64,000 bases of DNA. It comes from Sporosarcina sp. HYO08 (GTDB lineage: Bacteria; Bacillota; Bacilli; Bacillales_A; Planococcaceae). A program made the position numbers and the translations under genes. The notes below the pieces were generated by a model, which worked only from the letters and a program-made list of their open reading frames with translations, was not told the DNA's origin and did not search any database. Within the stretch, counting starts at the first letter, position 1. Every line of letters starts with the position of its first letter. Shown in pieces: positions 39,292 to 62,310 of the stretch. Where the stretch lies: NCBI RefSeq assembly GCF_001563475.1, contig NZ_LPUT01000001.1, forward strand, positions 434,001 to 498,000. The letters are read 5' to 3'.

Positions 39292-39362
39292 TCCTTTTTA
39301 ATAAAATAGAATTTAGGACAAAACTCTACTATGAATCGCAAAAAACCTCATGAACTACTAAT

Positions 39363-39540
39363 CAATTACGCCAAGGCGTAATTGCGTCGGGATTTTGAAT
39401 TGTGCCCGCAGGATGCGGGTATGCAGTCGTTGGGGCCGGCACGATGCCGGTCATGCGGTCGTGGCGACAGGATGTCGCGTACTTAGACCGCCTTCCTTAA
39501 CCCCTTTCAAAATCCCTGACATCCGCCCGAGGCTTAACTT
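39363..39540 (-). ncRNA. Bacillaceae-1-like RNA element, copy 1
   Basis: Read on the minus strand, this element has three 15-nt micro-hairpins with 5-bp stems and loops ATCCT (plus 39464-39478), ATCGT (39436-39450) and ATCCT (39405-39419). The first is enclosed by GCGGTC/GACCGC (plus 39486-39491 and 39455-39460). A long-range helix GGGATTTTGAA/TTCAAAATCCC closes the element, and a perfect 10-bp palindrome CAATTACGCC/GGCGTAATTG lies at 39363-39384. Two RUCCU loops are what I recall as the hallmark of the Bacillaceae-1 RNA motif; the third hairpin is extra. It lies in the gene-free stretch 39292-39755. Confidence 0.75.
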
Positions 39541-39541
39541 G

Positions 39542-39571
39542 AATCAGCAGGGGTTTGGACTCCCCCTGATT
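39542..39571. repeat. hairpin next to RNA element copy 1
   Basis: AATCAGCAGGGG pairs imperfectly with CCCCCTGATTT. A counterpart stem (47686-47730) stands at the same place relative to the second RNA element, so it may be part of the same repeat unit. Confidence 0.5.
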
Positions 39572-47685: not shown

Positions 47686-47730
47686 TTAAATTAAATCGGC
47701 AGGGGGTTACCCCCTGCCGATTTAATTTAA
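47686..47730 (+). terminator. perfect 21-bp stem after sodA
   Basis: The arms 47686-47706 and 47710-47730 are fully complementary, with a three-base TTA loop; the G/C core is CGGCAGGGGG/CCCCCTGCCG. There is no T-run, so it may end transcription, stabilise the sodA 3' end or belong to the repeat that follows. Confidence 0.7.
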
Positions 47731-47880
47731 GCCTCCGGCGGATGTCACAGATTTTGAAAGGAGTTAATGTAGGAGGCAACCTAAGTTCGCCGCGTCCTGC
47801 GGCAACGGTTGCATGACCAACATCCTGTTGGCCTCAAGCGCAATTCAAAATCTGGACGCAATCACGCCAAGGCGTGATTG
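47728..47880 (+). ncRNA. Bacillaceae-1-like RNA element, copy 2
   Basis: Two micro-hairpins GCCGC-GTCCT-GCGGC (47789-47803) and CCAAC-ATCCT-GTTGG (47817-47831) have RUCCU loops. The first is enclosed by GCAACC/GGTTGC (47776-47781, 47807-47812). A long helix CAGATTTTGAA/TTCAAAATCTG closes the element, and the palindrome CAATCACGCC/GGCGTGATTG ends it at 47859-47880. Every helix covaries with copy 1. It occupies much of the gene-free stretch 47686-48195. Confidence 0.8.
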
Positions 47881-47892
47881 ATTCGAAACCTA

Positions 47893-47979: not shown

Positions 47980-48105
47980 CCAGCCTGCTTGAAAACGCTT
48001 GTCAGCCTAGGCGCGAAGTCGAGCGAAGACGCGAATAGAACTAGAGTTCATGAGCGGACGAGCGAGACGAGCAACGACGGATGCGAGCGTTTGTCAACAG
48101 GCTGG
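47980..48105. repeat. 126-bp element with imperfect terminal inverted repeats
   Basis: The ends CCAGCCTGCTTGAAAACGCT (47980-47999) and the reverse complement of 48086-48105 match in 16 of 20 positions. The inside has GAGCGA/GACGAGC-rich sequence and no coding potential. It lies between two terminators, like a MITE or a large hairpin RNA. Confidence 0.55.
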
Positions 48106-48140
48106 GCACATATCTTGCACGTCAAGATATGTGCTTTTTC
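48106..48140 (+). terminator. intrinsic terminator upstream of pbpA
   Basis: GCACATATCTTG pairs with CAAGATATGTGC, loop CACGT, followed by TTTTTC. Confidence 0.85.
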
Positions 48141-56187: not shown

Positions 56188-56826
56188 ATGTTAAAAATTG
56201 CTGTGTTGCCATTAGGACCGATTCAAACGAATTGTTATCTTGTCTATGACCAAAACCTTAATTGTCTGATCATTGATCCGGGCGAGGAGAGCGAACGTCT
56301 CATTGAAGCGATTGAAAGTAATAACCTGAAGCCGGCTGCGGTGCTTTTAACGCATGCTCATTTTGATCATATTGGAGCGGTTGACGCGATTCGAGATCAT
56401 TTTACGATTCCGGTTTATATACATGAAGAAGAGAGCGAGTGGCTAAGTGATCCAAATTTGAATGGATCTGCTAAATACCCAACTTTACCGGATGTAAAAA
56501 ACCGTGCGGCGGATCATTTGATTACAAAAGAAGGGGCAATGGGCATAGGGCCATTTACATTTGAAGTGCGCCACACACCTGGGCATTCACCGGGAAGCAT
56601 TTCATTTATATTCGGGGAAGCGGGATTCGCAGTTGTTGGTGATACGTTGTTTCGTCAAAGCGTAGGACGTACGGATTTGGCATATGGAGACACCGATACA
56701 CTGTTACAATCGATCCACGATAAATTGTTGTCACTGGATGATGACGTTGTGATCTATCCGGGACACGGACCTGCGACAACGCCGGAAGCTGAAAAAGACA
56801 CGAATCCTTTTTTAAATGGGTTTTAA
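56188..56826 (+). CDS. yqgX: MBL-fold metallohydrolase (YqgX)
   Basis: A 212-residue metallo-beta-lactamase fold protein of the glyoxalase II/GloB-like group. The metal motif THAHFDHIG (about 55-63), HTPGHSPGS (about 130-138), GDTLF and YPGHGP are all present. Possible roles are hydrolysis of a thioester such as S-lactoylbacillithiol; this is a family-level inference. GGAGGGCG precedes the ATG. It is monocistronic and followed by a repeat cluster. Confidence 0.85.
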   Translation: MLKIAVLPLGPIQTNCYLVYDQNLNCLIIDPGEESERLIEAIESNNLKPAAVLLTHAHFDHIGAVDAIRDHFTIPVYIHEEESEWLSDPNLNGSAKYPTLPDVKNRAADHLITKEGAMGIGPFTFEVRHTPGHSPGSISFIFGEAGFAVVGDTLFRQSVGRTDLAYGDTDTLLQSIHDKLLSLDDDVVIYPGHGPATTPEAEKDTNPFLNGF

Positions 56827-56827
56827 C

Positions 56828-57045
56828 AACAAAAGCGGAGGGCGCCGTTTAGCCTCGACAGGCATAAGTCAATCTAGCGGCGTGGCGATTTTTGCCACAG
56901 AGCTAGATTGCTATTAAGGAAGTCAGCCTAAACGCGCCGCGTCCTGCGGCAACGGCTGACTAACCCGCATCCTGCGAGCCTCCGAGGGGCTGGCGCCCGG
57001 AGCTGGACGAAACAAAAGCGGAGGGCGCCGTTTAGCCTTGATAGG
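56828..57045. repeat. 35-bp direct repeats flanking a structured module
   Basis: A 28-bp identical sequence at 56828-56855 (starts AACAAAAGCGGAGGG, ends GTTTAGCCT) recurs at 57011-57038; the next seven bases differ in two places. Between them, CAATCTAGC/GCTAGATTG and GTGGC/GCCAC form nested stems and the RUCCU hairpins of RNA copy 3 follow. This accounts for most of the gene-free stretch 56827-57105. Confidence 0.8.
56915..56980 (+). ncRNA. Bacillaceae-1-like RNA element, copy 3 (partial)
   Basis: Hairpins GCCGC-GTCCT-GCGGC (56936-56950) and CCCGC-ATCCT-GCGAG (56964-56978, one mismatch) carry RUCCU loops with the same 28-nt pitch as copy 2. The first is enclosed by AGTCAGCC/GGCTGACT (56921-56928, 56954-56961). 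The long closing helix and the terminal palindrome of the other copies are not visible. Confidence 0.65.
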
Positions 57046-57065
57046 AAATCGCTATAACAAACAAC

Positions 57066-57094
57066 AAAAAAACAGCCGAAATGGCTGTTTTTTC
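57066..57094. terminator. bidirectional terminator before yqgY
   Basis: AAAAACAGCC pairs with GGCTGTTTTTT around GAAAT. Confidence 0.85.
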
Positions 57095-57105
57095 GTATGT
57101 ACATT

Positions 57106-62039: not shown

Positions 62040-62113
62040 GTTAGGCGAAAGGACATTATTAGTCCCAATGTTACTCATCATTACAAAAAAATGAACACTT
62101 TGCGGATGAATGT

Positions 62114-62310
62114 ATGGGGAGAGCACGCGTTAGGCGTCGCCGAAGGAGCAAACAGGAAAACTGTGAATCTCTCAGGTAACAAGACTCATACAGGACGCAT
62201 CTCTGGAGAGCGCTAGTTTGACTAGCCACCAAAGAAGAAAGCCTTTTGGCAAAACTTTCAGGTAAACGGACAGAGGTTCCTTATATATTAGGGAATCTCT
62301 GTCTATTTTT
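62114..62310 (+). ncRNA. tandem glycine riboswitch
   Basis: Two glycine aptamers are visible. The first (about 62114-62211) has GGGGAGAGC, CGCCGAAGGAGCAA and AATCTCTCAGGTAACAAGAC; the second (about 62212-62275) has CCACCAAAGAAGAAAGCC and ACTTTCAGGTAAACGGACAG. A terminator hairpin (GACAGAGGTTCC with GGGAATCTCTGTC, 62269-62303) and a T-run overlap the 3' edge of the second aptamer. In B. subtilis the equivalent RNA turns on the glycine-cleavage operon when glycine is abundant. With the upstream promoter this fills the gene-free stretch 61894-62334. Confidence 0.96.

What the first reader, a model, noticed from the sequence alone, without database searches (positions are those of the whole stretch)
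56828..57045. Composite repeat: direct 35-bp repeats around nested stems and a partial RUCCU module
A 28-bp exact duplication flanks about 155 bp that contains two nested stems and the two RUCCU hairpins with the same 28-nt pitch and 13-nt linkers as copy 2. The GTTTAG part of the direct repeat can also pair with CTAAACGCGCC next to the first hairpin, competing with the AGTCAGCC helix, which suggests alternative folds.
Basis: seen in the sequence. Interest (0 to 1): 0.52.

Follow-up and report, generated by a model that had tools for sequence, protein, structure and literature searches.

The report
Nested mobile hairpin repeat with RNA motif
The spot is one copy of a scattered, hairpin-shaped repeat found in many Bacillus-related bacteria, into which a second small repeat (the Rfam motif 'Bacillaceae-1', so far listed as a small RNA of unknown function) has been inserted; the 'direct repeat' is simply the start of the next, broken copy in a tandem row.

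Summary
In detail: a 28-bp exact (35-bp, 94%) repeat, 183 bp apart, flanks a stem and two RUCCU hairpins. The RUCCU part is Rfam RF01690, Bacillaceae-1 (72 bits). The downstream repeat is the 5' arm of a second, truncated tandem head; adjacent heads elsewhere share arms likewise. All 18 congeneric yqgX loci examined lack the composite. Bacillaceae-1 behaves as an independent insertion module: in this genome 27 of 30 copies sit inside repeats of three kinds; others lie in a holin-like toxin gene or inside another copy; insertion adds 62-72 nt and 5-12 nt of target are missing (12 of 14 comparisons). Its copy number is largely decoupled from the head's. Rare G-U pairs suggest pairing is kept at the DNA level. 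The proposed alternative fold is not conserved. Best reading: nested, non-autonomous mobile hairpin repeats; the mobilising enzyme is unknown and no RAYT link was found.

The parts
56824..56826 (+). stop codon of the upstream metallo-beta-lactamase-fold gene (yqgX-like, name recalled); element starts 4 nt later
   Evidence: the stop lies at the matching place in relatives
56831..57008 (+). head repeat ('type III'), end-to-end hairpin of about 117 nt plus the RF01690 insert
   Evidence: only match of model R1 in the window, E = 2e-11, full length; this copy was not in the model's alignment
56831..56856 (+). 5' arm of the head (outer helices, pairs with 56983-57008)
56870..56910 (+). apical hairpin of the head, 17-nt arms
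56912..56978 (+). Bacillaceae-1 module (RF01690) in place of the 3' strand of the CATAAG/CTTATG helix and the loop after it
   Evidence: 72.1 bits, model 1-67 of 67; versions of the site without the module in L014 and other loci
56983..57008 (+). 3' arm of the head
57009..57013 (+). 5-nt joint between tandem units; joints of a few bases are seen in other arrays
57014..57045 (+).
   Evidence: partial R1 match, 7.1 bits, E 0.045 in 196 nt; 28 exact bases shared with the first arm
57064..57096 (.). terminator-like hairpin, conserved in relatives without the element
47766..47831 (+). RF01690 copy inside a 'type I' repeat
39436..39502 (-). RF01690 copy inside a 'type I' repeat, followed by the remains of another RF01690 copy
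47980..48107 (+). 'type II' repeat without RF01690: comparator for six filled copies elsewhere in the genome

Best explanation
The segment is a nested repeat. Outer layer: one copy of a ~117-nt non-coding hairpin repeat ('head') scattered through Sporosarcina and other Bacillales, often as tandem units 120-126 bp apart with short joints. Inner layer: Bacillaceae-1 (RF01690), a second ~65-nt repeat that entered the head in place of a few bases of one helix strand; the two-layer unit then spread as a unit in some genomes. The copy landed between the yqgX-like stop codon and its terminator in this lineage and was duplicated in tandem; the downstream unit later lost all but its 5' arm. Shown: family membership, copy number, covariation, tandem structure, absence at the site in relatives, RF01690 present or absent at equivalent sites. 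Inferred: that spread is by transposition of a single-stranded or cruciform DNA hairpin by an enzyme encoded elsewhere, and that pairing is kept at the DNA level.
For: R1 finds this copy independently. Head covariation: 95.1% of cells paired, 438 two-sided changes against 151 in shuffles, 24 of 35 pairs with compensatory change. Head in 40 of 41 congeneric genomes, 0 to 85 copies, and in 15 of 151 genomes of the class, 11 of 81 genera; not in Rfam. RF01690: 27 of 30 held copies of this genome lie in repeats of three kinds. Filled against unfilled copies in five contexts: in 12 of 14 comparisons RF01690 adds 62-72 nt and 5-12 nt of target are missing; L025 (28 nt missing) and the window copy against L119 (mis-anchored) did not fit. 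Copy numbers largely decoupled: G040 24 heads/0 RF01690, G051 6/68, G016 4/43. All 18 relatives lack the composite at this site. Adjacent heads share arms at 90% or more in 20 of 43 pairs against 2.2% for unlinked ones, and mostly lie 120-126 bp apart; here 183, i.e. a plain unit plus the insert. G-U pairs are 2.9% (head) and 2.0% (RF01690) of standard pairs against 6.9% in 60 tRNAs. The RF01690 copies nearest to this one are two others in head units.
Against: No autonomous partner found. Target-site duplications are weak for single heads: 5 of 31 with a match of 5 nt or more, 1.5 expected, shuffles reach 5; one clean nested case (L023). RAYT-type transposases are not linked: 1 of 30 Y1_Tnp loci has a head within 1.5 kb, and G042 has 66 heads and no Y1_Tnp match. 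Head and RF01690 copy numbers still correlate moderately (Spearman 0.40, p = 0.009). Relatives at the site are only 58-73% identical in the flanking protein, so exact insertion ends cannot be read there. No transcript data were seen.
Confidence: 0.72

Rival explanations
1. Cis-acting RNA element of the yqgX-like 3' UTR: the hairpin (with or without RF01690) stabilises or processes the mRNA, perhaps with alternative folds.
For: Strong structure conservation. Element 5' end lies within -10..+15 nt of a same-strand stop codon in 16 of 31 arrays that follow a same-strand gene. Co-transcribed bcr3 repeats correlate with longer mRNA half-life in B. cereus (PMC3446304, passages read).
Against: Both orientations occur: of 71 arrays with both neighbours called, sense 15, antisense 29, convergent 16, divergent 11. 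Missing at this site in 18 relatives. Few G-U pairs. A-rich 5' flanks hold stop triplets in 32 of 51 against 47% of shuffles, so some stop-codon calls are by-products.
Confidence: 0.15
2. RF01690 here is a free-standing small RNA gene and the flanking repeats are incidental.
For: Rfam lists it as a gene/sRNA; Weinberg et al. 2010 (PMC2864571) mark it as a structured RNA that is not cis-regulatory (table passage read).
Against: 27 of 30 held copies sit inside other repeats at several different points of them; copies interrupt a Hol_Tox gene.
Confidence: 0.05
3. A unit bounded by the two 35-bp direct repeats is excised or amplified by recombination between them.
For: 28 exact bases, 183 bp apart; tandem heads share arms.
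Against: The second repeat is the beginning of the next unit, and no other copy of the exact repeat is in the genome. Recombination may still act on such arrays.
Confidence: 0.05

Closest known systems
Bacillaceae-1 RNA, RF01690
   Same: The inner module is a full-length member over the gathering score.
   Different: Described as an sRNA candidate; here it behaves as an insertion module inside other repeats and, elsewhere in the genome, inside a toxin gene.
MITE-like repeats bcr1-bcr3 of the Bacillus cereus group
   Same: Short non-coding intergenic hairpin repeats, multicopy, partly in UTRs (PMC3446304 and PMC3733652, passages read).
   Different: No sequence comparison was made (no bcr sequence was fetched); the head reaches many Bacillales genera, has no perfect terminal inverted repeats, and clear target-site duplications are not general.
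REP/BIME elements with RAYT transposases
   Same: Hairpin repeats between genes, in tandem or mosaic groups.
   Different: No Y1_Tnp link; the unit is longer (REPs 20-40 bp, abstract of PMC3733652) and nested.
BOX elements of Streptococcus pneumoniae (recalled)
   Same: Modular intergenic hairpins with optional inner modules.
   Different: Different sequences and lineage as recalled; here the inner module also lives in two other repeat families.

Membership tests
RF01690 Bacillaceae-1 | score above the curated gathering cut-off over the full model | tested here: met
   72.1 bits against 35, positions 1-67 of 67
RF01690 Bacillaceae-1 | transcribed as an RNA | not testable with these tools
   no expression data on hand
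MITE | no coding capacity, short, multicopy | tested here: met
   ~117-nt unit, 26 matches in this genome
MITE | terminal inverted repeats | tested here: inconclusive
   ends pair as imperfect arms with compensatory changes, but the outermost bases differ
MITE | target-site duplication | tested here: inconclusive
   5 of 31 single copies against 1.5 expected, shuffles reach 5; one nested case, L023
MITE | related autonomous transposon with the same ends | not tested
   only Y1_Tnp and TnpB-type genes were looked up; no systematic search for shared ends
REP associated with RAYT | repeat flanks a Y1 transposase gene | tested here: not met
   1 of 30 Y1_Tnp loci has a head nearby; G042 has 66 heads and no Y1_Tnp match
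any Rfam 15 family (for the head) | covariance-model match | tested here: not met
   7 head-bearing loci at E up to 1: no family reaching its cut-off on the heads apart from the RF01690 inserts
bcr1-bcr18 of B. cereus | sequence and structure of a named bcr family | not tested
   no bcr sequences were fetched

The most novel reading that the evidence does not exclude
Bacillaceae-1 and the head are minimal mobile DNA hairpins (about 65 and 117 nt). Bacillaceae-1 moves by replacing some 5-12 nt of the target with the hairpin, without a target-site duplication, possibly by template switching or a single-strand-specific enzyme not yet linked to it; Rfam's 'sRNA' is then a DNA parasite that nests in other DNA hairpins.
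Probability: 0.25. Interest if true: 0.72.

Novelty: new variant of a known kind. Interest (0 to 1): 0.48.

Why it matters
It recasts a catalogued 'small RNA of unknown function' as an insertion module that nests in other repeats, adds a widespread structured repeat family of Bacillales that Rfam 15 lacks, and offers filled/unfilled pairs with a regular small target loss: a direct handle on how very small non-autonomous hairpins spread in bacterial genomes.

Tried and rejected
A link of type I repeats to TnpB guide-RNA ends was considered: of six TnpB-like loci of the genome three (L054-L056) showed no such sequence downstream by eye; for L057-L059 the printed stretch was cut or badly placed. 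Dropped, not excluded. RAYT link not met; copy numbers correlate only weakly with Y1_Tnp counts (Spearman 0.37, p 0.018). General target-site duplications not supported for single heads. Plasmid and phage collections: no match. The alternative fold was rejected as a conserved feature. The filled/unfilled script failed for L025 (28 nt) and for the window copy against L119 (negative length); these two of 14 are not used. In one search, L064 was read in the wrong orientation; corrected. In one search head-borne copies in L109 (second copy) and L113 were labelled 'other' by a strict pattern, and L110 and L111 were not picked up by it. For alignment A1, 63 of 67 extracted units were used; four (L161, L216, L034, L094) were left out as odd in length or ends. 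Head and RF01690 counts are lower bounds (candidates scored were capped). Literature: searches in the held open-licence library listed no paper whose title or abstract start describes the head, or RF01690 as an insertion module; subscription papers are not held, and most listed papers were seen only in the listing.

Full report
What is there. The 35-bp direct repeat (28 bases exact), the 17-nt stem and the two RUCCU hairpins are present as described. The RUCCU pair is a complete Bacillaceae-1 motif, RF01690, and its 28-nt pitch is usual: 24 of 30 held copies of this genome. The exact repeat core occurs only here in the genome, but related arms are found at many other places.

The outer element. 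Loci from this genus and from a pattern scan of named genomes gave 67 plain units, 63 of which were aligned, about 117 nt each. They share the letters CGACAGGCATAAG...CTTATGAC and have helices whose letters change freely while pairing is kept: 95.1% of cells paired, 24 of 35 pairs with two-sided changes, 438 two-sided cells against 151 in shuffles, and a sharp drop when partners are slid. A model (R1) made without this copy finds just one match in the 64-kb window, 56831-57008, E = 2e-11. R1 has matches in 40 of 41 genomes of the genus and in 15 of 151 genomes drawn from the class. Named records with the core pattern include Sporosarcina, Planococcus, Bhargavaea, Jeotgalibacillus, Neobacillus, Mesobacillus, Litchfieldia, Metabacillus and others. 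Contig lengths of two congeneric genomes equal those of Sporosarcina records, so the window is taken to be Sporosarcina. Rfam has no family for it.

Why there is a direct repeat. Heads often stand in tandem with joints of a few bases. In 43 adjacent pairs the start-to-start distance is mostly 120-126 bp, and 20 of 43 share their 5' arm at 90% or more, against 2.2% of unlinked pairs. Here the distance is 183, one plain unit plus an RF01690 insert. The downstream copy is only a 5' arm. So the repeat marks the start of a second, truncated unit.

At this site in relatives. The gene before (yqgX-like, recalled name) and the terminator-like hairpin after it are conserved; of 18 congeneric loci none has the composite. 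Sixteen have only a spacer, G004 has a mini hairpin with head-like arms, and G014 a relic of another repeat. So among the genomes looked at the copy is found in this lineage only.

The inner module moves on its own. In this genome 27 of 30 held RF01690 copies lie in repeats: about 16 in 'type I', 6 in 'type II', 5 in heads (with flanks read; two weaker hits had no locus). Positions differ: two points in type I, two in type II, three in heads across the genus, inside another RF01690, and inside a Hol_Tox gene in two genomes, of which intact homologues exist elsewhere. Comparing filled with unfilled copies in five contexts, 12 of 14 comparisons show 62-72 nt gained and 5-12 nt of target missing, mostly 6-9; the comparators are diverged copies, not ancestors. 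Numbers of heads and RF01690 per genome are largely decoupled (G040 24/0, G016 4/43, G051 6/68), though a moderate correlation remains (Spearman 0.40). The RF01690 copies closest to this one are two others in heads of this genome, so the nested unit seems also to spread as a whole; of the five head-borne copies of this genome the other two have type I copies as nearest neighbours.

DNA or RNA. G-U pairs make up 2.9% of standard pairs in variable head helices and 2.0% in RF01690, against 6.9% in 60 distinct tRNAs found in the same loci. Arrays lie in both orientations to genes: sense 15, antisense 29, convergent 16, divergent 11, with 12 of 83 at locus edges (ORFs by a simple script, not curated genes). 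Both speak for pairing being kept in DNA. Against this, 16 of 31 arrays behind a same-strand gene begin within -10..+15 nt of its stop, 1 of 40 at an opposite-strand start; A-rich flanks explain part of it.

What moves them is open. Single heads show no clear target duplication (5 of 31 against 1.5 expected), with one clean nested insertion of a head in a type I repeat (L023). Y1 transposases are not linked. No plasmid or phage record matches.

Exact GTTTAG/CTAAAC complementarity is found in 1 of 15 composites listed, the window copy; 4 arms were not parsed, and L034 could form it with two G-U pairs. The best fold does not use it.

Verdict. A nested pair of non-coding hairpin repeats, most likely mobile and non-autonomous; a new variant of the kind 'bacterial small interspersed hairpin repeats', containing a known Rfam motif in a role not described in what was seen of the papers listed by the searches.

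Noticed in passing
L013/L358 (G000:C6:16369-16435) and L332/L357 (G046:C1:715860-715926): RF01690 interrupts a short holin-like toxin gene (Hol_Tox, PF16935 for intact homologues) at the same place in two species.
   Followed up: partly
L340, L343, L347 (G039, G043, G017): RF01690 lies a few bases upstream of another short holin-like ORF, between a conserved leader and its start, in three genomes.
   Followed up: no
L030, L033, L035: One RF01690 copy inserted in the first RUCCU hairpin of another.
   Followed up: partly
L122, L127, L130, L133, L134, L137, L147: A further hairpin module (GGAGGGATGYAGTTCAATCCCTCC-like) sits in head apical loops or inside RF01690.
   Followed up: no
window 47711-47885 and 39360-39553: Type I repeats (several hairpins) that carry the other two RF01690 copies of the window.
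   Followed up: partly
L109-L134 after the last head: A ~55-nt tail follows many heads and is similar between loci of one genome; tails look related between Sporosarcina and Litchfieldia/Metabacillus.
   Followed up: no
L221, L222: Records named Arthrobacter and Pseudomonas hold heads; mislabelled or contaminated assemblies are likely.
   Followed up: no
window 62106-62277: Tandem glycine riboswitch aptamers.
   Followed up: no
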